Assembly: GCA_039105265.1 (NCBI GenBank)
Contig: JAPFFF010000012.1
Coordinates: 5,518,001 to 5,582,000 of the forward strand
DNA length: 64,000 bases
Direction: 5' to 3'
From: Tritrichomonas musculus
Lineage: Eukaryota; Parabasalia; Tritrichomonadida; Tritrichomonadidae
Made by a program: the position numbers and the translations under genes. The notes beneath the pieces were generated by a model that did no database searches, was not told the origin of the DNA, and was given only the letters and a program-made list of their open reading frames with translations. Below, in pieces: positions 5,801 through 37,833 of this stretch (position 1 is its first letter; every line of letters begins with the position of its first letter).

Positions 5801-8545
5801 GATTTCAAATCAAATTACACTCATCTTTGCTCTCTTCAGAAAGATTTGAAAGCAGCCAAACAAGAAGTTGACAAAATTGAGGGAAAAATTGAGCAAGCAA
5901 TGAAAAAGATTACAAACGACGTCTCTCATTATGAAAAATCAATGAAAAAGAAGAAGGCAAGTTACAATAAGAAGCGAAACTCATCTGCTTCGACCAATCG
6001 CAAATATTATCCTTCTGAATCCGAGGCTTCTGAAAGATTCTTAAGCCAACAAGAAGAAGAGAGTCTTTCTATTTCCGTTGAATTTGACAAATTAAGCAGC
6101 AATTGTGTTTCAACCAATTTTGACGAATCAGATGAACAGCCAACAAAAACTAGAAATCAGAGCAGCAAGCAATCATCACCAAGCAAGAATAAAGCTGTCA
6201 AAAAGAAGGAGAAAACTGATGCTTACTATCCAGTAAGTGCAAGTAATGTGACTGAATCAGCACTTGATGATTTGAGTAATCATAATCTCTCATCGGCTTC
6301 AGTTTCGGCTTCTGAAAGTAGCAGAAGAAGCAGCAGTAAGAAACGTGGTTATTATTATGAGCAAAGTAATTCTTCATCACAAATTCGTGATGAAAGCAAA
6401 GCTAATCCAATCAGAAACAAGAGACAGACACAACATAAACAACAAGCTAAAAAAGTTGAAAAATTGGAAAGCGAAAGCAGTTTCGTGCAAATTGAAGAGG
6501 AAGAAGATGTTGAATACTTAAGTCAATCAAGTAAAATTAGCAGCCAAGAAGAAAAGAAAAAGACTTCTATAAATAAACAAGCTAAAAGCAATGATAGTAT
6601 GTCAGATAAAGCTAAGTTAATCGGTAAAGAAAAAGTTTTGGACGATAAGAATCAATCTGATAAGCAATCTAAATCAAGCACAGCTAAAAAAAGGAAAGAT
6701 TCAGAGAAATTAAACTCAAGCACAAATAATTCAAGAGAAGCCAGTAATGAAGCTGGCAATCCAAAAGAAAAAATTGAAGATAAAGTCCAAAGTAAAAGTA
6801 AAGAAGAAAACCAGAACTCTTCTGAGAAGGCAAGTGTGAAAAGTGAAGAAGCAGAACAAATAACTAATGAAGATGAAAATTTGAACTCTAATGAAATGAT
6901 TAGTAATAAAAATGAAGAAGAAGAGAATCTGAATTCTACTGAACAAATGAGCATAATGAATGAAGAAGAGAATATGAATTCTAATGAACAAATGAGCATA
7001 ATGAATGAAGAAGAGAATATGAATTCTAATGAACAAATGAGCATAATGAATGAAGAAGAAAATTTGAATTCTACTGAACAAATGAGCACGATGAATGAAG
7101 AAGAGAATTTGAATTCTACTGAACAAATGAGCACGATGAATGAAGAAGAGAATTTGAATTCTACTGAACAAATGAGCACAATGAATGAAGAAGAGAATTT
7201 GAATTCTACTGAACAAATGAGCATAATGAATGAAGAAGAGAATTTGAATTCTACTGAACAAATGAGCATAATGAATGAAGAAGAAAATCTGAATTCTAAT
7301 GAACCAATGAGCATAATGAATGAAGAAGAAAATCTGAATTCTACTGAACAAATGAGCACGATGAATGAAGAAGAGAATTTGAATTCTAATGAACAAATGA
7401 GCACGATGAATGAAGAAGAAGCAAGAAGTTCTCTAAATGAAATTGGCATCGAAAATGATGAAGAGGAGGAAGAAAATAACATAGACTTAAATAAGCACGA
7501 AAGCAATTCAAATGTAGAAGAAATTCATAGTTCACAAGAACTTTTAGCTAATCAAGAAGAAGAGAACGAATCACTGCTTTCTAACAACAAGAATGAAGAA
7601 GAAGATCTTTTGAACTCATCTGAATTCAACAGACAGGGAAATGAATCATTCACTTCAATTACCAAAAACGAAGAAGACGAAAATGAATCTTTGCTCTCAA
7701 TCATTAAAAATGAAGAAGATGAAACCGAATCATTCACTTTGAGCACCAAGAAAGAAGAGGAAGAAACAGAATCATTCATTTCAAACACAAAACAAGAAGA
7801 AGAAGAGAAAGAGTCACTTCTTTCAGCCAATAAAAACGAAGAAGAAGAAGAAAACGAATTATCCATACCAAACAACAAACAAGAAGAAGAAGAAGAGAAT
7901 GAATCATTCATTCTAAATGACAAGCATGAAGAAGAAGAGGATGAATTAGCAATTCTAAATAGCAAAGGCGAAGAGGAAGAAGAGGATGAATATGACAAAT
8001 TGCCTTCATTTTTAAATGACGAAGAAGAAAATCAAGAAATTTTCAACTTTGATGATAATAACAGTAACAAAGGAGAGGAGCAGCTTGACAGCAATAAAAT
8101 AACAGACACAGAGGAGGAGGACAGACAGATAGACAGCTTTGAAATAGCGATTGAAAACAAGAAAATTGAGAACAGCACAAATCACATAGAAAAACAAATT
8201 GAAAACATAAACAACATTCCTGTACCAGAAACATCAGGCACAAATGACGAGCTTGATGAATCAGGCACAAATGACAGAAAAGACGAGGTCCTGACAAATG
8301 AAAACGAGGCCAATAATAGCTCGATTTCGTCAATTTTTCAGAATGAGAATTCAACGGCAACTTTTGATGATTCAATTCAATATAATTCAAAATTAAATGT
8401 GTTAAATAATGAAGAAGATTTTGATGATAATGAAGAAGACTTTGAAGATATAGATTTTGGAGATCCTAATGCTATTAAATCATCGGATCTTGAAAAATCA
8501 ATTCCTGATATTATATCTGATAATGAAATAGATGAAGATAATTGA
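2864..8545 (+). CDS. Giant coiled-coil protein with Ser-rich and acidic repeat tail
   Basis: A 1,893-residue, highly charged, probably cytoskeletal or scaffold protein with no recognisable enzyme domain. Residues about 1-110 are Ser/Thr-rich. Residues about 115-630 are a long heptad-patterned coiled coil rich in Glu, Lys, Gln and Asn. Residues about 640-1000 are disordered and include a roughly 60-residue module, RSRKESTKNDNSSV followed by QKV.SKLD.DSQ, present twice. Seven Tyr-Tyr motifs (RYYP, KYYP, AYYP, NYYQ, GYYY and others) recur through the disordered part. Residues about 1362-1520 are a 15-residue tandem array (consensus MSIMNEEENLNSTEQ). The rest is Glu-rich with degenerate NESFILN..EEEE units. 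There is no signal peptide or membrane segment. The start is an ATG with no earlier in-frame ATG. The C-terminal third is duplicated in inverted orientation at 36131-37798. Function unknown; a flagellar or cytoskeletal role is only a guess. Confidence 0.85.
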   Translation: MTKRSQSASRSPIHTSNLANISPSSTTSENTVRDYKHSIKLLESQVSELQDKLDHTDSFDGLSSTHDSPSTHYIHTGSPVSTSSIRDPKYLNTSPMSAYNHQAYRSNFSLSSYRKYYEGQEENIRLSKNLELATEREKKLHQKYKYATAKIKDLRISFQETEKQYQELVESKKKTESENLILRAKQKDISKNYEQLETDNKLLSSQILQLKTENTRLQQENDKYRDNFAPIMKKCQKFKLQVSEDKKKMTKLYEINTKLTETNQQAIERYKRKESDLRQLNASFTNLQNENQHLKTENSNMKDEISNMRSELLKYKDRNIDIESETISIKELIEKVSSLSSENARLKGNPSFNSATNDVATYQNQIESLTNENLTLKNQLEEKSDELMKEINNLQQKVDFITLKATNDKKEIDHLKEENQQLIQENQRLIEENKKLNQEEEEVSFTNPVELKEEINNLRDQITKYQESSMKDKEKIDQLINKSSSLESVISEHEKKSSLLENQIKNSNNEIDQLKSQNQDLKLKHNSNDALISNLQNKIMLANQENDELNMKIFELTKFENEANKAKAENAKLKKEVKIRTVEVKKLKANEQKNNEVIDRLTKINAELQMKVQRLQAAEESSSTRSRYYPRTDETRSIVDDNDLKTESEIKSISESSFTISETLSRASNNNNKANDSERYYKNNDSDFCYYRNDSNASHKKQTQQKEQQSSPKSIIKNRKESVQNNESENRPKSRSTKSHKDGQIAIENKTVKNDSISTTSKRSSKSNNENRSRKESTKNDNSSVLSKSEADSQKVQSKLDGDSQSLSSMSEARSHNESAKNESSSVASSNNEEKQRGRSVKSSRDRRSASENRSRKESTKNDNSSVISNSEVSSQKVHSKLDEDSQILSSASEARSHKETVQKDNSSVASKSRNRNVKSNRDSQSVSSISERRSRKGSARDENSSVASSKRGNYYQLDDESDRSASALNSESIDLNDHDFKSNYTHLCSLQKDLKAAKQEVDKIEGKIEQAMKKITNDVSHYEKSMKKKKASYNKKRNSSASTNRKYYPSESEASERFLSQQEEESLSISVEFDKLSSNCVSTNFDESDEQPTKTRNQSSKQSSPSKNKAVKKKEKTDAYYPVSASNVTESALDDLSNHNLSSASVSASESSRRSSSKKRGYYYEQSNSSSQIRDESKANPIRNKRQTQHKQQAKKVEKLESESSFVQIEEEEDVEYLSQSSKISSQEEKKKTSINKQAKSNDSMSDKAKLIGKEKVLDDKNQSDKQSKSSTAKKRKDSEKLNSSTNNSREASNEAGNPKEKIEDKVQSKSKEENQNSSEKASVKSEEAEQITNEDENLNSNEMISNKNEEEENLNSTEQMSIMNEEENMNSNEQMSIMNEEENMNSNEQMSIMNEEENLNSTEQMSTMNEEENLNSTEQMSTMNEEENLNSTEQMSTMNEEENLNSTEQMSIMNEEENLNSTEQMSIMNEEENLNSNEPMSIMNEEENLNSTEQMSTMNEEENLNSNEQMSTMNEEEARSSLNEIGIENDEEEEENNIDLNKHESNSNVEEIHSSQELLANQEEENESLLSNNKNEEEDLLNSSEFNRQGNESFTSITKNEEDENESLLSIIKNEEDETESFTLSTKKEEEETESFISNTKQEEEEKESLLSANKNEEEEENELSIPNNKQEEEEENESFILNDKHEEEEDELAILNSKGEEEEEDEYDKLPSFLNDEEENQEIFNFDDNNSNKGEEQLDSNKITDTEEEDRQIDSFEIAIENKKIENSTNHIEKQIENINNIPVPETSGTNDELDESGTNDRKDEVLTNENEANNSSISSIFQNENSTATFDDSIQYNSKLNVLNNEEDFDDNEEDFEDIDFGDPNAIKSSDLEKSIPDIISDNEIDEDN
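6947..7420 (+). repeat. 45-bp tandem array (10 full units plus a partial)
   Basis: Ten head-to-tail 45-bp units encode MS(I/T)MNEEEN(L/M)NS(T/N)EQ, followed by a 24-base partial unit. Units differ at only a few sites (I/T, L/M, T/N). A degenerate 16-residue unit precedes the array. The inverted copy of the gene has 11 full units in a different order of variants. Confidence 0.95.
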
Positions 8546-8671
8546 AATAATGTTTTAATTTTTTTTTTATTGAATAAAAAATATTATTTGTTGTTTAAAT
8601 TTTTACTTACAAATTATTTTTGATAGAGCTTTATCAAAAAGTTATACTTTTTCTGAATTTTGTTTTTATTT

Positions 8672-10198
8672 ATGTTTTTGACTCCAAAAGGAACTGTTGA
8701 TTTAAACGATTTCAAAGAAATTTCCCTTTTAAGTTCTGAAACAGATTTATCTATATATATTACCGAAGATACAATTACTAATCACCAATATCTTCAAACA
8801 ATATATAAAAAGAAGTATGAATCCAAAGAAGATCAAAAAATATTTTACCATGAAATATTAAGGCTTTCAAATATTTCACAACATCCATTTCTTATAAATA
8901 TAGTAGGATTAAGTTTATTTGATTATAATAATAAACCGTTTCCAACCGTTTTCCATGATTATCTTCCCAACCGAACCCTCACAAACTTGCTTGCAAACCA
9001 TCCAATTTTCAATGAATTTCAACCAATTACTCCCACAAAAAAGTTTGTTATTTTACTCGGCATTGCACGCGGCATGAATCACTTACACAAAAACTTTCTC
9101 GCTCATGGGAATCTGGACACAGATCGCATTTATCTTGATTCCAATCTCCATCCCAAAATATTTGGCTTTAAAAAGACACAAGAAAGCAACGCGAGCACGG
9201 CGAAACAGGACGATATTTTCAACTTCGGTTTGATTGCCTTTGAACTTATAACGAACAAAAAATTGAATGAGACGATCAAACCGTCTGACACCTCACTTTT
9301 ACAGACTGATTGGCAACGAACCTTCCTCACAAAAATCATGTCAAAATATCGTTGGTACCGCCCCGACTTCGACCAGATAGTGAATGATCTTCTCCAGCAC
9401 TCGAGCGAGTTTGGCGATGTTGACGCAGACGAGATTGGGAGGGTAGAACGGATGACAATGAGGTACATGAAGTGGTATTGTCAACTTGTTGAAGAAGAAG
9501 CAGAGAAAGGAAGTCTGACTGACATGTTTTTGTATGGGACGATTTTGTCGGATGGCGACTTTGTTGAAACCGACAAGAAAGAAGCATTGAAATATTTCAA
9601 GAAGTCGGCGGATTTGGGCAACGTTCACTCGATGTTCAGCTATGCGTTCATGCTGTCCAAAGGCGATGGAATCCAAGCAAACAAGAGAGAAGCGGCTGAA
9701 TATTACAAGAAAGCAATTGACAAAGGAAATCGAACAGCAATGTTCAATTATGGACACATGCTTTTTAACGGCGATGGAATTCAAGCTGACAAAAAAGAAG
9801 CTGCTAAGTTTTACAAGTTGGCTGCTGATCAGGGGAACGTTAAGGCGATGTTCAATTATGCGATCTTGTTGGCAAAAGGCGACGGTGTTCAAATGAACAA
9901 GAAAGAGGCTGCAAAGTACTTCAAATTGGCTGCTGATTCGGGAAATTTGAAGGCAATGACTTATTACGCATCGATGATGCTAAAAGGCGACGGTGTTTAT
10001 TTAAATAAAAATGAAGCTGCCCTTTATTACAAGGAGGCAGCTGACAATATGCAAGTTGATGCAATGATGAAATATGCAATGATGCTGGAAACAGGAGATG
10101 GAATTCAACCTGATAAAAATGAAGCAATAAAATACTTCAAAATGGCTGCCGACCTTGGAAATAAAGAAGCTTTAGAAAATTATAAAAGATTAAAATAA
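8672..10198 (+). CDS. Pseudokinase with six C-terminal Sel1 repeats (copy 1)
   Basis: A 508-residue protein. Residues about 5-250 have the fold pattern of a TKL-type protein kinase (HPFL..IVGL, F.DYLPNRTL, GIARGMNHLH, ..RPDFDQI) but every catalytic motif is gone. There is no glycine loop and no identifiable VAIK lysine, HRD is replaced by H145-G-N147, and DFG by I163-F-G. It therefore cannot be a standard phosphotransferase. Residues about 285-508 are six 36-residue Sel1 repeats (A..YG..L..GDGIQ.DK.EA..YYK.AAD.GN) plus a partial seventh, a helical protein-binding solenoid. The likely role is a signalling adaptor. The frame extends upstream to a TTG, but the first ATG is at 8672 and gives the same start as the inverted copy. 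It lies 126 bp after the coiled-coil gene on the same strand. Confidence 0.9.
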   Translation: MFLTPKGTVDLNDFKEISLLSSETDLSIYITEDTITNHQYLQTIYKKKYESKEDQKIFYHEILRLSNISQHPFLINIVGLSLFDYNNKPFPTVFHDYLPNRTLTNLLANHPIFNEFQPITPTKKFVILLGIARGMNHLHKNFLAHGNLDTDRIYLDSNLHPKIFGFKKTQESNASTAKQDDIFNFGLIAFELITNKKLNETIKPSDTSLLQTDWQRTFLTKIMSKYRWYRPDFDQIVNDLLQHSSEFGDVDADEIGRVERMTMRYMKWYCQLVEEEAEKGSLTDMFLYGTILSDGDFVETDKKEALKYFKKSADLGNVHSMFSYAFMLSKGDGIQANKREAAEYYKKAIDKGNRTAMFNYGHMLFNGDGIQADKKEAAKFYKLAADQGNVKAMFNYAILLAKGDGVQMNKKEAAKYFKLAADSGNLKAMTYYASMMLKGDGVYLNKNEAALYYKEAADNMQVDAMMKYAMMLETGDGIQPDKNEAIKYFKMAADLGNKEALENYKRLK

Positions 10199-10306
10199 AC
10201 TTAAAATTATTTCCTATTTTTTATGCTTTTTTTTAGTTAATAAAAATCAATTTTTATATTTAAATAAGACATTTTGTTTGAAGTTTTATTTGAAAATTAT
10301 GAAATA

Positions 10307-11950
10307 CCCCCGAATTCCTACAAGTGAGAAAATTTTTGTACGTTAGAATTTTTATTTCAAGTTAGCAAAGAATTATTAAATTTGTTAACTTTACAAAAAA
10401 AATTTTTTTCTAAAAAAACCTTCAAACCAGGCATTTAAATATTTATAAAAAAATCAATTCATTGTTTTTATGAATAAATTTTTATTTTATAAATCAAAAT
10501 CAGAAGCATTTTTTATATTAACAAAACAAAAAAGTGACATGGCTATTGCAATTCTATTGTAATACTCATATTTTTTATTTACAAAGTTTCTTTATTCAAC
10601 GCCCAAATTCTCGGTATCAAAGCTATGTTTAATTAAATAATGGTCCTTATTAAGAAGGATTACTTGTTTTTTTACTCAAATAGTTAACAAATTTCTACTC
10701 GCTTTTATCAAATAACATTTTTTTTTTACAAAATCAGTTTTTTTGATTCGATTTTGACTTTTTATCTTATTTCTCTTTTATTTTATTATCACATTGGCAA
10801 ATTTTATTAAGATGAGCAGCTCAAATTTACTTTTTTTTCCACCATCTTAATTTTAATCGATAAAACTTATTTTTCTACATAGCATATGCCTACACAGCCA
10901 GATCTCTTTGCTCTTTTATTTAAATTTCAATGGAATTTTGATTTTCGAAAATTCGAAATTAAATATACTTATAACCTCAAAGTTTTTTATTCAAATCGTC
11001 AATTTTAGCATGTTTTATCTCATATTTATATATTGTATAGCTTCGTGTCCAATTTTTCTGTCTCAATTACTACTTTATTTACTTTTTTACCACTTTCACA
11101 CAATTTTTTTATAAATAAACCATTTAAATTATATTATTTTCTTATTTCATGTTCTCATTTAGCGTTAAGTTTTCATTGTTATTTTTTACTAATCGAGATT
11201 GTTTTCAAAAAAAATCGCTTTTCTATCATTTTTCCATATTACACTTCTTTTTTCAGTTATTTTAACATTATTTTTCGCAAACATATTTATATTTTCTCAA
11301 AAATTTAAATTAATAATTTGGTTATTATTTTACCTTTAATAGCCCGTTTCAATTTTATTTATTCATTTAATTCTACCATTGATATCAACGTAGAATCCGC
11401 GTGATTCATTTTAATATCTCTTTTAGTTCTTTCAAAAATTCTCAAATAATATCATATCAGAGAAGAAAAGTCAAAATTTTTAATTTTTAATTTGATATTC
11501 ACAAATACCTTTGGAGGAAGTTTATATTTTCTTTTGCCAATATTAACGAAATTTAAAGCTTAGTCGGATATTTTAAAATTATTATCAGAGAAAACCAAAA
11601 TTAAAAATTTCAAATGCTGATAAGTGCATAAATAACAAACATTTTAGACATATAATATTGACCAATATTCAATTTTTACCTATCTCTTTCATTTGACTAG
11701 GATATTAAAATTATTTGTTTTTTACCTCTTTTTTTTTTCTTCATTTTAATATCATCAAAGTATCTTGGTATAATGTTAATAAATATATAATGTATATAAT
11801 AAAATCTTTTTTCTTTCTTTAGTTATAAATCATTTTTATTTTTTATACGTTTATTGATTCAATTATCTCTCACAATTTCATTCAATTTTAATTCGATAAA
11901 ATTTATTCTAATAACGTACAAAAATTTTCTCACTTGTAGAGATTCGGGGG
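10307..11950. mobile_element. 1,644-bp element with 39-bp terminal inverted repeats and TA target duplication
   Basis: The ends form 39-bp terminal inverted repeats, 37 of 39 matching: 10307-10345 begins CCCCCGAATTCCTACAAGTG and 11912-11950 reads CCCCCGAATCTCTACAAGTG on the other strand. A TA dinucleotide flanks each side (10305-10306 and 11951-11952). The inverted duplicate at about 34369-34377 has the uninterrupted sequence with a single TA, which proves an insertion with TA duplication, as in Tc1/mariner-type transposition. I found no transposase frame, only short low-complexity open frames in A+T-rich DNA, so it is non-autonomous or fully decayed. Confidence 0.9.
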
Positions 11951-12153
11951 TATCATAAAAAAAATTATCGTTAAATGAATACTCACAATATGATCAATTA
12001 TAGAGATGCTTATGATTCAAATTATAGCTAAGAATAATAATATTATTTACTTAGCACCTTTTTTCTCTTAAAATTAAAAATTTTTAATGAAAAAGTTAAA
12101 ATGTCATCAAAAAATATTCAAAAAATTATCGTTAGTTTTATAAAATTTTTTGT

Positions 12154-12159
12154 TCATTT
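12154..12159 (+). promoter_or_regulatory. Initiator element (TCATTT)
   Basis: TCATTT matches TCAYTW and lies 21 bases before the ATG at 12177. If transcription starts at its A (12156), the upstream TTG at 12150 cannot be translated, which decides the start of the ankyrin gene. The same motif is conserved upstream of the inverted copy. Confidence 0.6.
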
Positions 12160-12176
12160 TATATTGTAGGACGAAT

Positions 12177-13904
12177 ATGAATTTTTTTGAAGATGAAAAG
12201 AAACTTGAATTATTCGAACAGATCCAAAAGAATTTATGCTCATTAGAACTCAATACAAGTGATTTTCAGATCAATAAATTAATTGAGCAAATTCCTGAAG
12301 AATTATTGAATCAAAAAGAAGATTTAATGATTATTTGTGAACTGTTTGCTATTTATGCTAGGAGTCATAGCCAAACCAAAAAAAGAAATATCTTTAAATT
12401 ATTTGAAGGTATAATGGATTCAATTAAAACATATTTATATGATGAATCAACATTTTTTTGGACAATATTCGGGGGATTATTTTATTTTAAGCTTTGGTTC
12501 TACGAAATTGGCCTTATTTCAATTGAAAAGATTATTTGTGCCGCCAAAAAAGACAAATTACACTCGATTGCTGAATATTTTTTCCCAGAAATAATTGAAA
12601 AAGAACCAGAACTATTTGAAAATGAAATAAAACACGAAATTCAATGCTCTTATTCACATGATGACATAGAAAAATTCAAAGAGTTACGAAAAAAGCATTT
12701 AAAATGGATTTGCGAGTCTGGAGATTTCAAAGATCCACTTTTTAAAGAAATAGAAACAGATCCTATTCGATATTCAATACTTACTGATGATCTTAATTTA
12801 TTTCAAGGTTTAATATCAAATTCTAATTTTAATCTCAATTCAAAAATTAAAGAATCGCTAATTTTGAACTCACATCGTCGTTATGATGAACAATCTTTGT
12901 TTGAATTTGCTTTGGAATACAATGCAGTTGCAATTTCAAAATATTTAATATTAAATAATGTTGAATATACAAATGGAATCTATTATAGCGTAACTACCAG
13001 TGGTAATTATGAATTAATTCATCTAATTGAAACTAAGTACCCACAAAATTTTCCAGAATACATGATTTTTAGTACAATTTCTCAATGGAACAGTGATATG
13101 ACCGAATATCTTTTGAATAATTACAATTTTGATTTCTTAGAAAAAGTTGATAACTCAAATGAAAATACACAGAAAATACTAAATATAATTCAATCTACCT
13201 TTAGTTATGTTAATTTTGAATTTTTAAGGCATACGATACTCCCTTTTCTAAGGAAAAATCCAAAATTTGTTGAAGATAATATTAATGAAATTGTAAATCT
13301 TACATTTGCTGAAAAGACTGGATTTCTAACCAAAGAATTCGTGAAACATCCTAATTTTGATGTTAATTTTTACTCTGAAGAGAATAATCAATCTATTCTT
13401 GGTAAATGCATTTTGGATGAGAACCTGAAAGCCATCGAAATTTTGTTAAAAGATCCAAATATTGATATAAATAAGCATGCAGCCAATAAGTTCCCTCCAT
13501 TGATGGTTGCTGTTGGTAACTATTCTGATATTAAAGTAATTGATATGATTTGTAATCATAAAGATGTTGATATAAATAAAAGGGATGAACGCTATAACAT
13601 AAATTCTTTTGAACTTTCGGTTTCAAGAGGAAACATTTATTCATGCAAATACTTTATTGATAATATTCAGAATTTGGATGTAAATTCTTTTGGATGTCTG
13701 TTTTTCTTTACACTAAAATCTCGCTATTTAAGTACATTGAGAGTTGTGCTGAATTATTATTTGAATTTAAACAAAAAAGAGGAATATGAAAACATTGTTA
13801 GTCAAATAAAAGTATTCTCTTTCATTAATGAATATAAGGAAGAATATCTTGATGATTTCAAACAGGTTTATGATGAATTGACTCACAATTCTAGTGCTGA
13901 CTAA
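12177..13904 (+). CDS. Trichomonad-type ankyrin-repeat protein (DUF3447-like), copy 1
   Basis: A 575-residue protein starting MNFFEDEKK. The N-terminal roughly 220 residues resemble the helical region common in the large trichomonad ankyrin families: a leading FEDEKKLELFEQIQ, aromatic FFWTIFGGLFYFKLWFYE, then SIEKIICAAKKD. The remainder carries degenerate ankyrin-like units, best seen as the sequence from SEENNQSILGKCILDENLKAI to ILLKDPNIDINKHAANKFPP and CNHKDVDINKRD. There is no signal peptide or confident membrane segment; the aromatic patch near residue 110 is too short and mixed. The ankyrin part implies protein binding, but partner and pathway are unknown. An in-frame TTG 27 bases upstream was rejected as start because of the Initiator at 12154 and the first ATG rule. 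The inverted copy (31234-32961) differs at two residues (S/G and A/T). Confidence 0.88.
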   Translation: MNFFEDEKKLELFEQIQKNLCSLELNTSDFQINKLIEQIPEELLNQKEDLMIICELFAIYARSHSQTKKRNIFKLFEGIMDSIKTYLYDESTFFWTIFGGLFYFKLWFYEIGLISIEKIICAAKKDKLHSIAEYFFPEIIEKEPELFENEIKHEIQCSYSHDDIEKFKELRKKHLKWICESGDFKDPLFKEIETDPIRYSILTDDLNLFQGLISNSNFNLNSKIKESLILNSHRRYDEQSLFEFALEYNAVAISKYLILNNVEYTNGIYYSVTTSGNYELIHLIETKYPQNFPEYMIFSTISQWNSDMTEYLLNNYNFDFLEKVDNSNENTQKILNIIQSTFSYVNFEFLRHTILPFLRKNPKFVEDNINEIVNLTFAEKTGFLTKEFVKHPNFDVNFYSEENNQSILGKCILDENLKAIEILLKDPNIDINKHAANKFPPLMVAVGNYSDIKVIDMICNHKDVDINKRDERYNINSFELSVSRGNIYSCKYFIDNIQNLDVNSFGCLFFFTLKSRYLSTLRVVLNYYLNLNKKEEYENIVSQIKVFSFINEYKEEYLDDFKQVYDELTHNSSAD

Positions 13905-18801: not shown

Positions 18802-19503
18802 TTATAATTTGCATGATCAAGTAAAAATCTTTTTTTAACTTATTTTTTTTAACTTTGAAAATTAACAAGCTTTTTTTATTTGTTTGTTTGCTTGCTTGCT
18901 TTTCAATGTTTCTTTAGCATATAATTAATATATTATTGTTTTGTGACTCAAACCTAGTATATGAAAAATATTTAAAATGCTTCAATAGAGCCCCGCGTGA
19001 TAAAACTTTTTAGCATCTTTTTATATTTTTATTGAGACTTGTCTTTGAGTTTTTTTTTTTTTTTTTTTTTTTTTTGACCAACTCTGTTCAATCAATCAGA
19101 TCATATCAATAAATATGAATTGACTCAATTCGTTCCAAATGAATTCGTTGAACTCAATATTTTTGAGAAGAGCTCTTCTCAAAATTTAACTTACTTCGTT
19201 CGTTTTCGCTTTTTTATAATATCGATATAATACATGACATAAGTAATTTATTGAACATTTTTGCAGATCAAAACACTTCATCTTTCATTAGATACACTCT
19301 TCTCATTTTTTCATCATCGGAAGCTTTGATGAGCACGTAAATGTATTGTAATGTTAGTTTTTGTTAATATTACAATATAAACATTATTATGCTAAGCTTT
19401 TTCTTCATTTTTATAAAATTTATTAAATCACTTGTTCTTTGAGATTTATAAAAAAGTGATATGAAATACACATTTTTTTCAATCATCAAAAAACTCTTTG
19501 AAG

Positions 19504-19536
<33 letters not shown>

Positions 19537-19539
<3 letters not shown>

Positions 19540-19628: not shown

Positions 19629-19726
19629 TCTTTTTTTTTTTTTTTAAAAAAAAAAAAAATTATTTTTATTATTATTATTATTGTAAATTCATAAAGAATA
19701 ATCATAAAACTGAGCAATTTTTTTGA

Positions 19727-26295: not shown

Positions 26296-26783
26296 AATCT
26301 AAGCTTTTTTTTTATTTTATCGTTGTTATTTAAATAAAGAATGTTCATGTACATTTTCTTATATTATTAACCTTCTATTCAATTGTTTATTTTGTTTTTT
26401 ATTAAATGATTTGTGAAAAATATTAAAGTTGATCATTTGATATCATTCTTATTATTTAAAAACTATTATAATTGTTATCAATTAATTTTGTGAGAAAATT
26501 AAAAAAGATATCTATGATTTAATATAAAATAAATTTCATAAAAAAAAATAAAATATTTTATTTTTTATAAATGAATTGAATAATAAAGATGAGATAAACT
26601 TCTCAATTTATTTGATAAAATTTCACTTTTCCTATATAAAATATTCTCAAAAGTTTTCATATTGAGCCAAATTAAAAAAGAATTTTATTTTGAAACCTGT
26701 TTACAATAAATATTTCTATCTTTCTTTCTTTTGGAAATTTTATGCATTAATTATTTATTATGAAAGTTTTATCTTTAATTATT
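26296..26783. other. Intergenic region between convergent genes
   Basis: A+T-rich 3' flank shared by two converging genes. No gene, RNA or clear repeat seen. Confidence 0.5.
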
Positions 26784-28520: not shown

Positions 28521-28540
28521 TTCAAGCAGAATTAAATATA

Positions 28541-28547
28541 AAAGTGA
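28541..28547 (-). promoter_or_regulatory. Initiator-like TCACTTT
   Basis: On the minus strand TCACTTT matches TCAYTW and lies 20 bases before the ATG of the BspA-like gene. Confidence 0.5.
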
Positions 28548-29912
28548 ATTTTGAATATGCTCTCAATTTTTTAAAAATTTTCAATTAATATAAAAAAATT
28601 CAATTTGATTATCGTCGTTTTTCACAAATTTATAATACAAATTCAGAAGTGTTCTGAATAGGTTAATTTATGGTCACTTAATTTTTCGAGGAATAAATAA
28701 TTATTTAATCGGCTTTTTTTTTTTTTTTCTATTTCTTCGAAAGGTTTTTTCCTATTTCTTTGGAATATTTTCAACAATTACTAAAATGTATATAGAGGCT
28801 ACAACAGTGTATTTTTTGAAATAATATATAAAGTTAACATTGCATAAAAATGTAAAATATTTCAATATTTTTCAGTTATTTCACTTTATTCAAAAACCAA
28901 AAAATAAAATTTAAAATATTATAATATCATTTTATGATTGAAAAACCTGATGTATTCAATTTTCAAAGCGAAATTGAAAAATAAATATTTTTTCCATAAT
29001 ATATAATACAATTTTTGAACGATTTTCCCAAAGTTTGGATATATTTTAGTATTTAATCCAGCATATAATCTATATTATTCAAGCAAATAAACATACTATT
29101 AAAAATTTTACTATAATAAGAAATTTGTGTTTTAAGATATAATAAAGAATTTTTTAATTGAAAAAAATCGGTGCAACTTTTTTATTAGTTTTTTTTTCTA
29201 TTTTTCAATTGATTTATTTTTTTCTACTCTTTTTCAGAGGAGGGTAAACTAATTGAATGGTCAATTTTTTCACATTGTTTCTATTTTTTTGCGTTATGTA
29301 ATTAATAAATTCATATTTTTATTTTATTTATAAATAATTTAATTATTTTCATATATAAATATTACTTTTATGATTTGATTGAGAACAATTGATGATAATA
29401 GGAGATTCTTAATTTCAAGTAATTCAAGATAGATCGAAATTCAGTATTTTTACAAAATGGATGAGATATAATTAGTTTTTTGAAATAAATACTGATGCTA
29501 TTAAGTCAAATATTGTCCCAAATTCAGCAGACCAAATCATTCAAAAACGATATGTTAGATATAAACGCATATAATGAATCTATTTAATCACATAAATTTC
29601 AAATCCTAACTCCCAATTTTATATTAGAGTCATGATAAGATACACTCGATCATTAGTTTTATACATTCTCGCAAGCAAATATATGGATTGTTTCAATATC
29701 GTTCATAATAATCAATTATCAAAAAAATTTCACGCAAAAGTTTGAGCGTTTTATTTATATTTAGCAAATTTCGGCCATCACTTTTTCTTTTTATTTTCTT
29801 CCCATCCTTTGCGCAAGTATAATACATTCAAAACTGAAGATGTTGACGCTCATTTATTTTTTTCATCAAAAATAAAAATACTTTTTTTAGCGGTTATATA
29901 AGAATAGGACAA

Positions 29913-30050
29913 TCGTTTTTTTCTACGCCACTTTTTGAATGGTTTTTCTATCCGTGAATAGCTATTATTTAGCAAAAATTGAATAAAAAATGTATAAAAA
30001 AGTATTCAAAAAGTTTAAAAGTTTTCAAAAAGTGGCGTAGAAAAATACGA
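29913..30050. repeat. MITE-like element with about 27-bp inverted repeats
   Basis: TCGTTTTTTTCTACGCCACT at 29913 onward is mirrored at 30024-30050. The core TTTTTCTACGCCACTTTTTG is a perfect inverted repeat. Total length is 138 bp with an A+T-rich middle and no coding potential. Confidence 0.75.
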
Positions 30051-30848
30051 TTCCCCATAAGAATATTTATTTCCGAATTGAATATATAATTCAAAATTTT
30101 AACTGAAATATGGCTGTCTTGTATGGAATATATATAATTGTTATTAGACTTCACTTTTTGTACCAACCTTGTTCTACAAAGAACGATAGAAAAAATACAA
30201 GGTTTGTACAATGTATTTTTTATTGAAAATATTGAATACATAAAATAATCATATCTCTGAAAAAAGATAATATACCAAATAATTTTTTGTGAATAAATAA
30301 AATATCAATTAAATTATTTAATAAAACCATTTTTGTAAAAGTAAAATGCAATTTTTAAAATTCATTTTTTGCAAAGGTGAAATGATTGACCATTTTATAA
30401 AAAGAACATAATCACTCTGTGAGTAAACCAATTCACATTACTCAAAATTTCTAGATTATTTACTATTATAATATTGTTTTATAAACATTTAATTCCTTTT
30501 TAACATATAAAACCAATACTAAAAAGCGATTATATAAAATATAAACTGAAGTGCCTCAAAATTTTAATTTTATCTATTCATTGATTTTTTTAATAAAATT
30601 TAATTTGAAAACTTGATATTTTTACCAAAAACTTGCAAATACAACAACCAAAATAAGGATTAAAGAATATAAACGTTAAAAAGTTACGTTAATGAATTTG
30701 TGATGTGAAAAAAGTAAAGGCTAATTGTTATATAGACAAAAAGGTTGTCAAAATTATTTATTTGAAAATTATTAAATATATTATTTGAAATTTTGGTTTT
30801 TCAGAGAAAATGAATTCTAATACATTGGTTTTTCTTTATATAGAACTT

Positions 30849-30851
<3 letters not shown>

Positions 30852-30896
<45 letters not shown>
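30852..30896. repeat. (AT)n microsatellite
   Basis: About 21 AT dinucleotides, 100 bp outside the boundary of the inverted duplication. Confidence 0.95.
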
Positions 30897-30898
<2 letters not shown>

Positions 30899-31233
30899 GA
30901 TAAAATTCAATCAAATTATAGTATACAAACTGTTGATTTTTCTATGAGATGAGTTTCCTTCTCATTCAATTTTTAATCGAAAAGATAAATATTTGAATTT
31001 TTACAGCTTTACGAATCATAAATTTACTACTAATAACTGAATGATAAATATGTTAACATTACTTGAAACCAACGTTTACCTTCTTTGTTCTTTTTTTTTA
31101 GATGATTTCTTTAAACACAAGATATATAATTAAACACAGTATATATCAAGATATGTATAATTGTGTAGTGCAGGCAAAGCGAATAACAATAGCAATTTAA
31201 AATTAATTTTGTTTATTTTATTGAAATTATAAA

Positions 31234-32961
31234 TTAGTCAGCACTAGAATTGTGAGTCAATTCATCATAAACCTGTTTGAAATCATCAAGATATTCTTCC
31301 TTATATTCATTAATGAAAGAGAATACTTTTATTTGACTAACAATGTTTTCATATTCCTCTTTTTTGTTTAAATTCAAATAATAATTCAGCACAACTCTCA
31401 ATGTACTTAAATAGCGAGATTTTAGTGTAAAGAAAAACAGACATCCAAAAGAATTTACATCCAAATTCTGAATATTATCAATAAAGTATTTGCATGAATA
31501 AATGTTTCCTCTTGAAACCGAAAGTTCAAAAGAATTTATGTTATAGCGTTCATCCCTTTTATTTATATCAACATCTTTATGATTACAAATCATATCAATT
31601 ACTTTAATATCAGAATAGTTACCAACAGCAACCATCAATGGAGGGAACTTATTGGCTGCATGCTTATTTATATCAATATTTGGATCTTTTAACAAAATTT
31701 CGATGGCTTTCAGGTTCTCATCCAAAATGCATTTACCAAGAATAGATTGATTATTCTCTTCAGAGTAAAAATTAACATCAAAATTAGGATGTTTCACGAA
31801 TTCTTTGGTTAGAAATCCAGTCTTTTCAGTAAATGTAAGATTTACAATTTCATTAATATTATCTTCAACAAATTTTGGATTTTTCCTTAGAAAAGGGAGT
31901 ATCGTATGCCTTAAAAATTCAAAATTAACATAGCCAAAGGTAGATTGAATTATATTTAGTATTTTCTGTGTATTTTCATTTGAGTTATCAACTTTTTCTA
32001 AGAAATCAAAATTGTAATTATTCAAAAGATATTCGGTCATATCACTGTTCCATTGAGAAATTGTACTAAAAATCATGTATTCTGGAAAATTTTGTGGGTA
32101 CTTAGTTTCAATTAGATGAATTAATTCATAATTACCACTGGTAGTTACGCTATAATAGATTCCATTTGTATATTCAACATTATTTAATATTAAATATTTT
32201 GAAATTGCAACTGCATTGTATTCCAAAGCAAATTCAAACAAAGATTGTTCATCATAACGACGATGTGAGTTCAAAATTAGCGATTCTTTAATTTTTGAAT
32301 TGAGATTAAAATTAGAATTTGATATTAAACCTTGAAATAAATTAAGATCATCAGTAAGTATTGAATATCGAATAGGATCTGTTTCTATTTCTTTAAAAAG
32401 TGGATCTTTGAAATCTCCAGACTCGCAAATCCATTTTAAATGCTTTTTTCGTAACTCTTTGAATTTTTCTATGTCATCATGTGAATAAGAGCATTGAATT
32501 TCGTGTTTTATTTCATTTTCAAATAGTTCTGGTTCTTTTTCAATTATTTCTGGGAAAAAATATTCAGCAATCGAGTGTAATTTGTCTTTTTTGGCGGCAC
32601 AAATAATCTTTTCAATTGAAATAAGGCCAATTTCGTAGAACCAAAGCTTAAAATAAAATAATCCCCCGAATATTGTCCAAAAAAATGTTGATTCATCATA
32701 TAAATATGTTTTAATTGAATCCATTATACCTTCAAATAATTTAAAGATATTTCTTTTTTTGGTTTGGCTATGACTCCTAGCATAAATAGCAAACAGTTCA
32801 CAAATAATCATTAAATCTTCTTTTTGATTCAATAATTCTTCAGGAATTTGCTCAATTAATTTATTGATCTGAAAATCACTTGTATTGAGTTCTAATGAGC
32901 ATAAATTCTTTTGGATCTGTTCGAATAATTCAAGTTTCTTTTCATCTTCAAAAAAATTCAT
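31234..32961 (-). CDS. Trichomonad-type ankyrin-repeat protein (DUF3447-like), copy 2
   Basis: A 575-residue near-copy of the protein at 12177-13904, differing at two positions (G for S in the STFGYVNF segment, T for A in NLTFTEKTG). The frame is intact with the same start, the same upstream TCATTT and the same stop, so both copies may be expressed. As for copy 1, ankyrin-like units in the C-terminal half suggest protein binding; function is otherwise unknown. The insertion at 33081-34272 lies about 120 bp upstream of the start, beyond the Initiator, so it could change regulation of this copy without touching the protein. Confidence 0.88.
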   Translation of the reverse strand: MNFFEDEKKLELFEQIQKNLCSLELNTSDFQINKLIEQIPEELLNQKEDLMIICELFAIYARSHSQTKKRNIFKLFEGIMDSIKTYLYDESTFFWTIFGGLFYFKLWFYEIGLISIEKIICAAKKDKLHSIAEYFFPEIIEKEPELFENEIKHEIQCSYSHDDIEKFKELRKKHLKWICESGDFKDPLFKEIETDPIRYSILTDDLNLFQGLISNSNFNLNSKIKESLILNSHRRYDEQSLFEFALEYNAVAISKYLILNNVEYTNGIYYSVTTSGNYELIHLIETKYPQNFPEYMIFSTISQWNSDMTEYLLNNYNFDFLEKVDNSNENTQKILNIIQSTFGYVNFEFLRHTILPFLRKNPKFVEDNINEIVNLTFTEKTGFLTKEFVKHPNFDVNFYSEENNQSILGKCILDENLKAIEILLKDPNIDINKHAANKFPPLMVAVGNYSDIKVIDMICNHKDVDINKRDERYNINSFELSVSRGNIYSCKYFIDNIQNLDVNSFGCLFFFTLKSRYLSTLRVVLNYYLNLNKKEEYENIVSQIKVFSFINEYKEEYLDDFKQVYDELTHNSSAD

Positions 32962-33080
32962 ATTCGTCCTACAATATAAAATGAACAAAAAATTTTATAA
33001 AATTAACGATAATTTTTTGAATATTTTTTGATGACATTTTAACTTTTTCATTAAAAATTTTTAATTTTAAGAGAAAAAAG

Positions 33081-34272
33081 AGAGGTCGTTCAGTGAAGTG
33101 ATTTTAACGTAACTTTTTGCTTGCAATCAACTTTTTACCAAAAAATATTTAACAAAATTTACAAAAAATAATATAATCATAATTTATATGATTATTCTGT
33201 TTTGTTAAATGTAAAATTGTAGTCAAATATGATTTTTTTAATTTTTGAAATAATAATAATCATTACTGATTTTATCTTTGAATTTTTAAGATTTGTAAGA
33301 TTTAATACGATAAATTATATTATTATTCATATGCTCGTTATAAATACCTTGAATCAATCTATTTAAATGATTATTGGTCTCTGAATTGCATTATTAGATA
33401 ATTTCAGTTTTTTGACATCAAACATTATTCACCGGTTTTTGGTATTTATTCTTTTGGTTAGTTATTGTAATATGATTTTATCTTCAACTTTTTAGGAAAT
33501 TTCTTCCAGTCAATTTTGCATTATAAAATTGCATTTTTAATTCCTATACAATCATCTCCAAATTAAAGATTTTAATATATTTTAATATATTTATATATAT
33601 ATTATTAATTTGATTATTCAATTAATTTATCAAAATTTTAGATATTTATAGATATAAATCAATTTTTATAATTTGAGAGTATTTTTCTGTTAAAATAATT
33701 TATTCAATATTTTTATTTATTTAAATGAAAAAATTGAATAACAATTATATTTATTATTCAATCTTATAAATATATATATATATAATTCCAATAATACTCT
33801 TAAAATGATTGTAATTAATAATAAACAATATTAATATAATATAATTTTCAATTAATTAACTAATATTTATGTTTTGATAAAGATATAAATAAATTATATA
33901 ATTTTATTACACTATTATTATAGAATAAATTATTTTTAAAAAATTGAGAAAAAAATAAATGCTTCTCAAATTATTTTTTTATGAAATAAACTAGTAAAAG
34001 TATGGAATTCTTAAAAAAAATTATTAAATAAATATAATAATGAATTAGGAAAAATGGGAAAAAGTGTAATAAAATTAATTTTTATCTTCTAGGTCAAAAA
34101 TATGGTCAAGATTATTATTGCTTTTCATTGAATTATTAAAAATTAAAATATCTAAAGATCAGTCGGAAATTTTTTTAAAAATATTATTTTCTCTTTATAT
34201 ATATATATCATATAATAACATACTAAAAAATAATCTGTTTTTGAATTACTTTTTATAAGTTGAACGACCTCT
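33081..34272. mobile_element. 1,192-bp element with 12-bp terminal inverted repeats and 8-bp target duplication
   Basis: The ends are AGAGGTCGTTCA and its exact reverse complement TGAACGACCTCT. They are flanked by the 8-bp direct repeat GAAAAAAG (33073-33080 and 34273-34280). In the left arm the corresponding site (about 12067-12074) has one uninterrupted copy of that 8-mer, an empty site. An 8-bp duplication is typical of hAT elements and also of Merlin and P elements; the ends alone do not decide. No transposase frame is visible in the very A+T-rich interior. A 510-bp partial copy lies at 47088-47597. Confidence 0.9.
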
Positions 34273-34476
34273 GAAAAAAGGTGCTAAGTAAATAATATTA
34301 TTATTCTTAGCTATAATTATAGAGTATTCATATTGTGAGTATTCATTTAACGATAATTTTTTTTATGATATTTCATAATTTTCAAATAAAACTTCAAACA
34401 AAATGTCTTATTTAAATATAAAAATTGATTTTTATTAACTAAAAAAAAGCATAAAAAATAGGAAATAATTTTAAGT

Positions 34477-36003
34477 TTATTTTAATCTTTTATAATTTTC
34501 TAAAGCTTCTTTATTTCCAAGGTCGGCAGCCATTTTGAAGTATTTTATTGCTTCATTTTTATCAGGTTGAATTCCATCTCCTGTTTCCAGCATCATTGCA
34601 TATTTCATCATTGCATCAACTTGCATATTGTCAGCTGCCTCCTTGTAATAAAGGGCAGCTTCATTTTTATTTAAATAAACACCGTCGCCTTTTAGCATCA
34701 TCGATGCGTAATAAGTCATTGCCTTCAAATTTCCCGAATCAGCAGCCAATTTGAAGTACTTTGCAGCCTCTTTCTTGTTCATTTGAACACCGTCGCCTTT
34801 TGCCAACAAGATCGCATAATTGAACATCGCCTTAACGTTCCCCTGATCAGCAGCCAACTTGTAAAACTTAGCAGCTTCTTTTTTGTCAGCTTGAATTCCA
34901 TCGCCGTTAAAAAGCATGTGTCCATAATTGAACATTGATGTTCGATTTCCTTTGTCAATTGCTTTCTTGTAATATTCAGCCGCTTCTCTCTTGTTTGCTT
35001 GGATTCCATCGCCTTTGGACAGCATGAACGCATAGCTGAACATCGAGTGAACGTTGCCCAAATCCGCCGACTTCTTGAAATATTTCAATGCTTCTTTCTT
35101 GTCGGTTTCAACAAAGTCGCCATCCGACAAAATCGTCCCATACAAAAACATGTCAGTCAGACTTCCTTTCTCTGCTTCTTCTTCAACAAGTTGACAATAC
35201 CACTTCATGTACCTCATTGTCATCCGTTCTACCCTCCCAATCTCGTCTGCGTCAACATCGCCAAACTCGCTCGAGTGCTGGAGAAGATCATTCACTATCT
35301 GGTCGAAGTCGGGGCGGTACCAACGATATTTTGACATGATTTTTGTGAGGAAGGTTCGTTGCCAATCAGTCTGTAAAAGTGAGGTGTCAGACGGTTTGAT
35401 CGTCTCATTCAATTTTTTGTTCGTTATAAGTTCAAAGGCAATCAAACCGAAGTTGAAAATATCGTCCTGTTTCGCCGTGCTCGCGTTGCTTTCTTGTGTC
35501 TTTTTAAAGCCAAATATTTTGGGATGGAGATTGGAATCAAGATAAATGCGATCTGTGTCCAGATTCCCATGAGCGAGAAAGTTTTTGTGTAAGTGATTCA
35601 TACCGCGTGCAATGCCGAGTAAAATAACAAACTTTTTTGTGGGAGTAATTGGTTGAAATTCATTGAAAATTGGGTGGCTTGCAAGCAAGTTTGTGAGGGT
35701 TCGGTTGGGAAGATAATAATGGAAAACGGTTGGAAACGGTTTATTATTATAATCAAAAAAACTTAATCCTACTATATTTATAAGAAATGGATGTTGTGAA
35801 ACATTTGAAAGCCTTAATATTTCATGGTAAAATATTTTTTGATCTTCTTTGGATTCATACTTCTTTTTATATATTGTTTGAAGATATTGGTGATTAGTAA
35901 TTGTATCTTCGGTAATATATATAGATAAATCTGTTTCAGAACTTAAAAGGGAAATTTCTTTGAAATCGTTTAAATCAACAGTTCCTTTTGGAGTCAAAAA
36001 CAT
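34477..36003 (-). CDS. Pseudokinase with six Sel1 repeats (copy 2)
   Basis: A 508-residue near-copy of the protein at 8672-10198, intact from ATG to stop. It differs at five residues by eye: V/I, F/L and Y/D in the kinase N-lobe, S/N before IFNEF, and S/A in the third Sel1 repeat. The same catalytic losses are present (HGN for HRD, IFG for DFG, no glycine loop), so the pseudokinase state predates the duplication. The Sel1 block has six 36-residue units. Retention of the whole frame in both copies suggests both are under selection or that the duplication is very recent. It lies between the transposon-like insertion and the truncated coiled-coil copy. Confidence 0.9.
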   Translation of the reverse strand: MFLTPKGTVDLNDFKEISLLSSETDLSIYITEDTITNHQYLQTIYKKKYESKEDQKIFYHEILRLSNVSQHPFLINIVGLSFFDYNNKPFPTVFHYYLPNRTLTNLLASHPIFNEFQPITPTKKFVILLGIARGMNHLHKNFLAHGNLDTDRIYLDSNLHPKIFGFKKTQESNASTAKQDDIFNFGLIAFELITNKKLNETIKPSDTSLLQTDWQRTFLTKIMSKYRWYRPDFDQIVNDLLQHSSEFGDVDADEIGRVERMTMRYMKWYCQLVEEEAEKGSLTDMFLYGTILSDGDFVETDKKEALKYFKKSADLGNVHSMFSYAFMLSKGDGIQANKREAAEYYKKAIDKGNRTSMFNYGHMLFNGDGIQADKKEAAKFYKLAADQGNVKAMFNYAILLAKGDGVQMNKKEAAKYFKLAADSGNLKAMTYYASMMLKGDGVYLNKNEAALYYKEAADNMQVDAMMKYAMMLETGDGIQPDKNEAIKYFKMAADLGNKEALENYKRLK

Positions 36004-36130
36004 AAATAAAAGTAAAATTCAGAAAAAGTATAACTTTTTGATAAAGCTCTATCAAAAATAATTTGTAAGTAAAAATTTAAACAACAAATAATATTTTTTA
36101 TTCAATAAAAAAAAAAATTAAAACATTATT

Positions 36131-37798
36131 TCAATTATCAGATATAATATCAGGAATTGATTTTTCAAGATCCGATGATTTAATAGCATTAGGATCTCCA
36201 AAATCTATATCTTCAAAGTCTTCTTCATTATCATCAAAATCTTCTTCATTATTTAACACATTTAATTTTGAATTATATTGAATTGAATCATCAAAAGTTG
36301 CCGTTGAATTCTCATTCTGAAAAATTGACGAAATCGAGCTATTATTGGCCTCGTTTTCATTTGCCAGGACCTCGTCTTTTCTGTCATTTGTGCCTGATTC
36401 ATCAAGCTCGTCATTTGTGCCTGATGTTTCTGGTACAGGAATGTTGTTTATGTTTTCAATTTGTTTTTCTATGTGATTTGTGCTGTTCTCAATTTTCTTG
36501 TTTTCAATCGCTATTTCAAAGCTGTCTATCTGCCTGTCCTCCTCCTCAGTGTCTGTTATTTTATTGCTATCAAGCTGCTCCTCTCCTTTGTTACTGTTGT
36601 TATCATCAAAGTTGAAAATTTCTTGATTTTCTTCTTCGTCATTTAAAAATGAAGGCAATTTGTCATATTCATCCTCTTCTTCCTCTTCGCCTTTGCTATT
36701 TAGAATTGCTAATTCATCCTCTTCTTCTTCATGCTTGTCATTTAGAATGGATGATTCATTCTCTTCTTCTTCATGCTTGTCATTTAGAATGAATGATTCA
36801 TTCTCTTCTTCTTCTTCTTGTTTGTTGTTTGGTATGGATAATTCGTTTTCTTCTTCTTCTTCGTTTTTATTGGCTGAAAGAATTGACTCTTTCTCTTCTT
36901 CTTCTTGTTTTGTGTTTGAAATGAATGATTCTGTTTCTTCCTCTTCTTTCTTGGTGCTCAAAGTGAATGATTCGGTTTCATCTTCTTCATTTTTAATGAT
37001 TGAGAGCAAAGATTCATTTTCGTCTTCTTCGTTTTTGGTAATTGAAGTGAATGATTCATTTCCCTGTCTGTTGAATTCAGATGAGTTCAACAGATCTTCT
37101 TCTTCATTCTTGTTGTTAGAAAGCAGTGATTCGTTCTCTTCTTCTTGGTTAGCTAAAAGTTCTTGTGAACTATGAATTTCTTCTACATTTGAATTGCTTT
37201 CGTGCTTATTTAAGTCTATGTTATTTTCTTCCTCCTCTTCATCATTTTCGATGCCAATTTCATTTAGAGAACTTCTTGCTTCTTCTTCATTCATTGTGCT
37301 CATTTGTTCATTAGAATTCAGATTTTCTTCTTCATTCATCGTGCTCATTTGTTCATTAGAATTCAAATTCTCTTCTTCATTCATCGTGCTCATTTGTTCA
37401 TTAGAATTCAGATTTTCTTCTTCATTCATCGTGCTCATTTGTTCATTAGAATTCAAATTCTCTTCTTCATTCATTATGCTCATTTGTTCATTAGAATTCA
37501 AATTCTCTTCTTCATTCATTATGCTCATTTGTTCATTAGAATTCAAATTCTCTTCTTCATTCATCGTGCTCATTTGTTCATTAGAATTCAAATTCTCTTC
37601 TTCATTCATTATGCTCATTTGTTCATTAGAATTCAAATTCTCTTCTTCATTCATCGTACTCATTTGTTCAGTAGAATTCAAATTCTCTTCTTCATTCATT
37701 ATGCTCATTTGTTCATTAGAATTCAAATTCTCTTCTTCATTCATCGTGCTCATTTGTTCAGTAGAATTCAAATTCTCTTCTTCATTCATTATGCTCAT
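36131..37798 (-). pseudogene. 5'-truncated copy of the coiled-coil gene (acidic C-terminal part)
   Basis: Encodes 555 residues matching the C-terminal third of the protein at 2864-8545: 11 full 15-residue units, then the Glu-rich region. Everything upstream (coiled coil, Ser-rich part) is missing. The frame runs back through a poly-T tract to a stop near 37874 with no earlier ATG. Compared with the full gene it has one extra NESSILNDKHEEEE unit and loses six codons before the stop, by an 18-bp deletion between GATAAT repeats. It could in theory be translated from the first repeat's Met, but no promoter is visible, so a truncated duplicate is the safer call. Confidence 0.8.
37280..37798 (-). 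repeat. 45-bp tandem array, 11 full units plus a partial
   Basis: Same unit as at 6947-7420, but with 11 rather than 10 full copies and a different order of I/T and N/T variants, while the sequence next to the array is almost identical between arms. Confidence 0.95.
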
Positions 37799-37814
37799 TT
37801 GTTCATTAGAATTC

Positions 37815-37833
37815 AGATCTAATTTTATGTTTA

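What the first reader, a model, noticed from the sequence alone, without database searches (positions are those of the whole stretch)
6947..37819. Large inverted duplication with near-identical arms around a 17-kb unique centre
About 5.5-7 kb at 6947-14141 recurs in reverse at 30997-37819. The two protein-coding genes wholly inside differ by only 2 and 5 residues by eye, yet each arm has gained its own transposon-like insertion. The arms are therefore a recent genuine duplication rather than a trivial assembly echo, and the central genes (Pmp-like, triple kinase, BspA-like) are bracketed by a palindrome able to pair or flip. Inversion polymorphism of the 17-kb centre by recombination between arms is a direct prediction.
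Basis: partly seen in the sequence, partly recalled or inferred. Interest (0 to 1): 0.75.

Follow-up and report, generated by a model that had tools for sequence, protein, structure and literature searches.

The report
Recent inverted duplication in Tritrichomonas musculus
A stretch of about five kilobases carrying two whole genes and half of a third was recently copied, in reverse, to a spot seventeen kilobases away in the genome of a mouse gut protist; it looks like a real and tidy example of ordinary genome rearrangement, and whether the middle ever flips is untested.

Summary
The window is contig C12 of the Tritrichomonas musculus EAF2021 assembly. Arm A (6911-14141, +) recurs inverted as arm B (37818-30997), with 16,855 bp between. 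Outside a 45-bp array the arms differ by 22 substitutions in 4,967 bp (0.44%) plus a few indels; searches of the assembly showed no third copy. Each arm holds one transposon-like insert (A: 1,644 bp, TA target duplication; B: 1,192 bp, 8-bp duplication), and the other arm keeps the empty site, so the arms are separate loci, not an assembly echo. Gene 1 is full length only at A; its B copy starts inside the array. So A is probably the source and B a truncated inverted copy. One close relative from public data carries arm B's residue at both sites where the gene-3 proteins differ, placing those changes on arm A. Arm A's inner edge has a 40-bp inverted scrap of a dispersed repeat, a template-switch-like scar. 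Flipping of the centre is possible but untested (no reads), and the centre genes lie over 2 kb inside the arms, so a flip should not switch them. The "unique centre" is not wholly unique. Ordinary mechanism, well-resolved example.

The parts
6911..14141 (+). Arm A (probable source copy): 45-bp array and 3' half of gene 1, gene 2, gene 3, with insert
30997..37818 (-). Arm B (probable derived, inverted copy)
14142..30996 (.).
2864..8545 (+). Gene 1, 1893 aa, intact; crosses the outer edge of arm A; DNA search of 2700-6900 matched only itself in the assembly
36131..37798 (-). 5'-truncated copy of gene 1 in arm B, open for 555 codons, beginning inside the 45-bp array
8672..10198 (+). Gene 2 in arm A: protein kinase domain plus Sel1 repeats, 508 aa
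34477..36003 (-). Gene 2 in arm B (5 residue differences)
12177..13904 (+). Gene 3 in arm A: ankyrin-type protein, 575 aa (Ank_2 match just under Pfam's cut-off)
31234..32961 (-). Gene 3 in arm B (2 residue differences)
10307..11950 (.). Insert in arm A, 1,644 bp, about 39-bp terminal inverted repeats, TA target duplication, no ORF of 100 codons; 9 other near-full-length copies at 99-100% among the 40 of 328 candidates scored
33081..34272 (.). Insert in arm B, 1,192 bp, 12-bp perfect terminal inverted repeats, 8-bp target duplication CTTTTTTC; 28 other near-full-length copies at 93-99% among the 40 of 88 candidates scored
6911..7420 (+). 45-bp tandem array of gene 1, arm A (10 full units in the split)
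37280..37818 (-). 45-bp tandem array, arm B (11 full units in the split); ends abruptly at the outer edge of arm B
14140..14179 (.). 40-bp scrap of a dispersed repeat, inverted relative to the rest of that repeat; abuts the inner edge of arm A

Best explanation
A single, evolutionarily recent inverted segmental duplication. A piece of locus A, from inside gene 1's 45-bp array to 237 bp past gene 3, was copied in reverse to a place 17 kb downstream, giving second full copies of genes 2 and 3 and a 3' half of gene 1 without that gene's own upstream region (shown: the two copies, their boundaries and the truncation; inferred: direction A to B, a single event). The inner junction of arm A carries a small inverted scrap of a dispersed repeat, which fits repair or replication with template switching (inferred). 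Later, one DNA element without a transposase gene of its own entered arm A and another, different one entered arm B (shown by target duplications and by the empty site in the opposite arm). The arms have since diverged by 0.44% outside the array; the array differs by about 5.7%. Crossing over between the arms could in principle invert the centre (not shown).
For: Arms and divergence; inserts with empty sites; gene 1 whole at A and cut at B, with its 5' part matched only at A; no third copy of the arm segments searched (in only 40 of 328 and 40 of 104 candidates were scored, all 4); nearest gene-3 paralogue only 54% identical and nearest gene-2 relative about 41% over most of the length, so the pair is far younger than its families; relative P0001 carries 7 residues of its own and arm B's state at both gene-3 sites, placing both changes on arm A if P0001 is an outgroup; inverted repeat scrap at the inner edge of arm A, opposite in orientation to the 8 copies that carry it.
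Against: No reads were examined, so arrangement and orientation rest on the deposited assembly. Divergence falls from 0.81% (outer) through 0.46% to 0.24% (inner), and substitutions cluster weakly (8 in 450 bp, p = 0.026 by 20,000 shuffles; p = 0.065 with adjacent changes merged; longest clean stretch p = 0.11), which partial gene conversion would also give. P0023 mixes arm A and arm B residues. The scar at arm A's inner edge could be a separate, later event.
Confidence: 0.77

Rival explanations
1. An older inverted-repeat pair kept alike by gene conversion between arms, with occasional crossovers that flip the centre, as in the yeast chromosome XIV flip/flop.
For: Divergence falls inward; weak clustering of substitutions; P0023 carries arm B residues at 68 and 82 and arm A residues at 96, 109 and 356; the yeast precedent has 4.2-kb inverted repeats 24 kb apart (PMC9731477, passages).
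Against: The truncated gene 1 and both insertions have escaped homogenisation; no second genome shows the pair; P0023 is listed under the source code lgn alone, which I take to be Logan short-read assemblies (recalled), and may be a chimera, since residues 82 and 96 are 40 bp apart.
Confidence: 0.13
2. Assembly artefact: two alleles or a misjoined contig placed as inverted arms.
For: Arm divergence (0.44%) is close to the heterozygosity estimate for the isolate (0.345%), and Smudgeplot favoured a nearly homozygous diploid (PMC11978803); ONT scaffolding with gap filling was used.
Against: Two independent misjoins would be needed, one at each end of arm B, since the outer flank of B is not gene 1's 5' part; the arms carry a substitution every 226 bp on average, which HiFi reads (mean 8.9 kb) can phase; there are no N in the window.
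Confidence: 0.06
3. A transposon-driven duplication, for instance by transposition using ends of two element copies (not exclusive of the best explanation, which leaves the trigger open).
For: A dispersed-repeat scrap abuts the inner edge of arm A; the genome is rich in repeats (42.67% masked, PMC11978803).
Against: Neither terminal-repeat insert lies at an arm boundary, and each is absent from the other arm, so both look younger than the duplication; I saw no target duplication at the arm B edges, by eye only.
Confidence: 0.08
4. A programmed invertible switch that changes expression of the surface-protein genes in the centre.
Against: The centre genes lie over 2 kb inside the arms (16873 and 28520 are the starts nearest to the arms), so a flip would not change their near upstream sequence; none of the 10 proteins scanned against Pfam matched a recombinase (10 of the 23 ORFs listed, gene 1 only in part).
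Confidence: 0.02

Closest known systems
Saccharomyces chromosome XIV flip/flop region (PMC9731477; passages seen)
   Same: Two near-identical inverted repeats of a few kb, each with a pair of protein genes, flanking a region of tens of kb
   Different: The yeast pair is kept across the genus and seen in both orientations; here there is one assembly, one orientation, a truncated third gene and arm-specific insertions
Inverted duplications and inversions predicted within Giardia isolates (PMC7048089; passages seen)
   Same: Inverted duplications in a gut protist found with long reads
   Different: Those are predicted variants among chromosome copies of one isolate; this is a feature of one assembly with arms diverged by 0.44%
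Tc1/mariner insertions that are polymorphic among Trichomonas vaginalis isolates (Tvmar1, PMC4021607; passages seen)
   Same: A DNA element with terminal inverted repeats inserted between host genes in a trichomonad
   Different: The arm A element has a TA duplication but no ORF of 100 codons, so its superfamily is unproven; no sequence comparison with Tvmar1 was made

Membership tests
Inverted segmental duplication | Two low-copy, high-identity copies in opposite orientation that include non-transposon sequence | tested here: met
Inverted segmental duplication | Each copy real and separate, not an assembly echo | tested here: met
   Arm-specific substitutions and insertions with empty sites; met on the assembly only, reads not examined
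Flip/flop inverted repeat pair (yeast type) | Both orientations of the centre observed | not testable with these tools
   No reads or second isolate; no flipped copy seen in the searches of the assembly
Flip/flop inverted repeat pair (yeast type) | Arms homogenised by gene conversion | tested here: inconclusive
   Weak clustering, inward fall of divergence
Tc1/mariner element (insert in arm A) | TA target-site duplication and terminal inverted repeats | tested here: met
Tc1/mariner element (insert in arm A) | Transposase of the family | tested here: not met
   No stretch of 100 codons without a stop in this copy; called mariner-like by target site only, not filed as a member
Programmed invertible switch | Promoter or coding sequence crossing an inversion edge, so that flipping changes a gene of the centre | tested here: not met
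   Centre genes lie over 2 kb from the arm edges; gene 1 does cross the outer edge of arm A, but a crossover within the arms would only swap its 3' half for the near-identical one

The most novel reading that the evidence does not exclude
Arm B's 3' half of gene 1, which has lost that gene's upstream region, acts as a silent donor cassette: conversion between the arms shuffles its array units into the expressed gene 1 of arm A, and crossovers in the same arms keep the centre flipping. The fast-evolving array (5.7% against 0.44%) and the excess of synonymous changes in the 3' half of gene 1 (6 of 8; P 0.0006 to 0.0035 against a neutral expectation, three genes tested) are not at odds with this.
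Probability: 0.04. Interest if true: 0.6.

Novelty: new member of a known kind. Interest (0 to 1): 0.24.

Why it matters
It shows cleanly how one step of gene-family growth can happen in a trichomonad: a local inverted copy that doubles two genes of large families (kinase-Sel1 and ankyrin) and beheads a third, followed by separate element insertions that mark both copies. It offers a marked locus at which inversion by recombination between arms could be counted in long reads.

Tried and rejected
Palindrome or assembly echo: rejected on the empty sites and on gene 1 being whole in one arm only. Transposon cause by the two inserts: they look younger than the duplication and are not at its edges. 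A strong conversion gradient suggested by the first BLAST (96% against 99.8%) came mostly from misaligned repeat units; block counts give 0.81, 0.46 and 0.24%. Third copy or flipped contig: none seen (only part of the candidates were scored in 4 and 7). Homologues of the truncated gene-1 product: none at E <= 0.001 among 7,987 candidates, hardly informative because the protein is repetitive. Gene order at the next gene-3 paralogue (C12:4149062): no gene-2 relative near it among the matches listed, whose list was cut. Literature: 'trichomonas' + 'inverted duplication' gave 5 papers, none on trichomonad genome structure by title; searches showed no description of this locus in their listings (titles and abstract starts; two listed 15 of 25 and 10 of 23 papers). 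In the T. musculus genome paper the words 'inverted', 'inversion', 'synteny' and 'telomer' do not occur in the main text.

So how unusual the pair is within this genome is unknown.

Full report
What the window is. The window is G000:C12:5518001-5582000 of a 193.4-Mb assembly in 746 contigs. The contig lengths C12 = 5,637,089 and C3 = 9,021,615 are the lengths printed beside NCBI proteins M9Y10_006334 and M9Y10_023726 of Tritrichomonas musculus. The genome paper gives 193.49 Mb, 756 contigs, 29.47% GC and a longest contig of 11,419,247 (PMC11978803, first two of four parts of the text read, and a word search); 11,419,247 also appears as the contig length of another M9Y10 protein. The window has 29.2% GC and no N. 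The assembly used PacBio HiFi reads (mean 8.9 kb) in canu, then ONT reads over 10 kb for scaffolding; GenomeScope suggested a haploid, Smudgeplot a nearly homozygous diploid.

The observation. Arm A (6911-14141) and arm B (37818-30997) are an inverted pair with 16,855 bp between. Outside the array and the inserts there are 22 substitutions in 4,967 bp, 0.44%. By block: 10 in 1,233 (gene-1 3' half and intergenic), 7 in 1,527 (gene 2), 0 in 108, 5 in 2,084 (gene-3 arm), with gaps of 42, 18 and 1 bp in the first block; the 45-bp array has 29 in 510. A 95-column strip between the two insertion points has 1 mismatch and four small gaps. The longest identical run is 1,067 bp.

The two inserts. In arm A a 1,644-bp element (10307-11950) with about 39-bp terminal inverted repeats sits between two TA copies; arm B has the site with one TA and no element. 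It has no stretch of 100 codons without a stop. Nine other near-full-length copies are 99-100% identical (40 of 328 candidates scored). In arm B a 1,192-bp element (33081-34272) with 12-bp perfect terminal inverted repeats sits between two copies of CTTTTTTC; arm A has one copy and no element. Twenty-eight other near-full-length copies are 93-99% identical (40 of 88 candidates scored). Each insertion is absent from the other arm, so the simplest reading is that both came after the duplication.

Direction. Gene 1 (2864-8545, 1893 aa) runs through the outer edge of arm A, and a search with 2700-6900 matched only itself in the assembly. In arm B the same gene begins inside the array, which ends abruptly next to a 16-base stretch and a run of T. 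The simplest reading is that A is the source. Gene 3 gives some polarity: a relative from public data, P0001, has 7 residues of its own and agrees with arm B at both sites where the arms differ, so both changes look to have happened in arm A. For gene 2 the relative P0023 agrees with arm B at 68 and 82 and with arm A at 96, 109 and 356. That may be the ancestral state, a recombinant, or a short-read chimera; I cannot tell which.

Edges. At the inner edge of arm A the sequence passes, with an overlap of a few bases, into a 40-bp scrap (14140-14179) that belongs to a dispersed repeat whose body follows at 14232-14489. Of 11 loci that matched the body (40 of 104 candidates scored), 8 also carry the scrap, each in the opposite orientation to the window; the other 3 showed no match to it. 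The 8 were fetched and confirmed; five of them were aligned in detail. This looks like a template-switch scar. The inner flank of arm B is different sequence with a TA microsatellite at 30855-30902. By eye I saw no target duplication at arm B's ends.

Copies. No third copy of the segments 7420-9100, 9000-10306 or 12050-14141 was seen (all 4 candidates scored, a part in the others). The nearest gene-3 paralogue is 54% identical, on the same contig 1.4 Mb away; 31 near-full-length matches at 32-54% are spread over the genome (76 of 1,801 candidates scored). The nearest gene-2 relative is about 41% identical over most of the length; higher identities, up to about 60%, cover the Sel1 repeats only (85 of 4,749 candidates scored, list cut). 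So the pair is a young local event within large old families.

Selection and conversion. Coding changes are 2 nonsynonymous and 6 synonymous in the 3' half of gene 1, 5 and 2 in gene 2, and 2 and 1 in gene 3. The first departs from a neutral expectation (P 0.0006 to 0.0035 for transition weights 1 to 3), the others do not. Three genes were tested and there are only 8 changes. The plain reading is that most changes fell in the intact, constrained gene of arm A. Clustering of substitutions is weak (p = 0.026, 0.065 with adjacent changes merged, 0.11 for the longest clean stretch).

Could it flip? A similar pair does in yeast: 4.2-kb inverted repeats 24 kb apart, homogenised by gene conversion and found in both orientations (PMC9731477, passages). 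Here the substrate looks adequate (an identical run of 1,067 bp), but the assembly shows one orientation only and no reads could be examined. A flip would carry the three centre genes with over 2 kb of flank at either end, so it would not give or take a near upstream region. That makes a switch function unlikely.

Verdict. The flip is a fair but untested prediction. The kind of event is well known; the interest is in the clean record it keeps.

Noticed in passing
41304-45998 (-) and 47661-50353 (+): Two kinase-Sel1 genes in head-to-head orientation, 31-40% identical in protein over their matching stretches, so an older inverted gene pair may lie next to the young one; the right-hand one is split over several ORFs.
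   Followed up: partly
47088-47597: A 510-bp partial copy (97.6%) of the element that is inserted in arm B, just upstream of the split kinase-Sel1 gene.
   Followed up: no
21423-24170: Part of the triple-kinase gene has a 94-97% copy on contig C28 at 1522928-1525646: a second recent duplication touching this locus.
   Followed up: partly
30145-30724: High-copy dispersed repeat of about 580 bp, 93-98% identical in 39 other copies (40 of 1,095 candidates scored).
   Followed up: no
14579 to at least 15600: Another dispersed repeat family, 99% identical in its matching parts to the 4 copies fetched; the window copy carries extra sequence at about 15094-15433.
   Followed up: no
L031 (C43:574600-576400): The copy on C43 of the repeat that abuts arm A lies a few hundred bases past the end of a gene-3 paralogue (C43:573110-574810), as in the window; the other ten loci of that repeat showed no such neighbour. 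Chance or an old association, not examined.
   Followed up: no
7421-8545 against 36131-37279: Six of eight coding differences between the intact and the truncated gene 1 are synonymous, an excess over neutral expectation; why a headless copy should look constrained is unexplained.
   Followed up: partly
12177-13904 and 8672-10198: The close matches to these genes in the protein collection (P0001, P0023) list no NCBI source although other T. musculus proteins do, so the published annotation may lack models for the duplicated genes.
   Followed up: no
window end: The window ends about 55 kb from the right end of contig C12; whether that is near a chromosome end was not examined.
   Followed up: no
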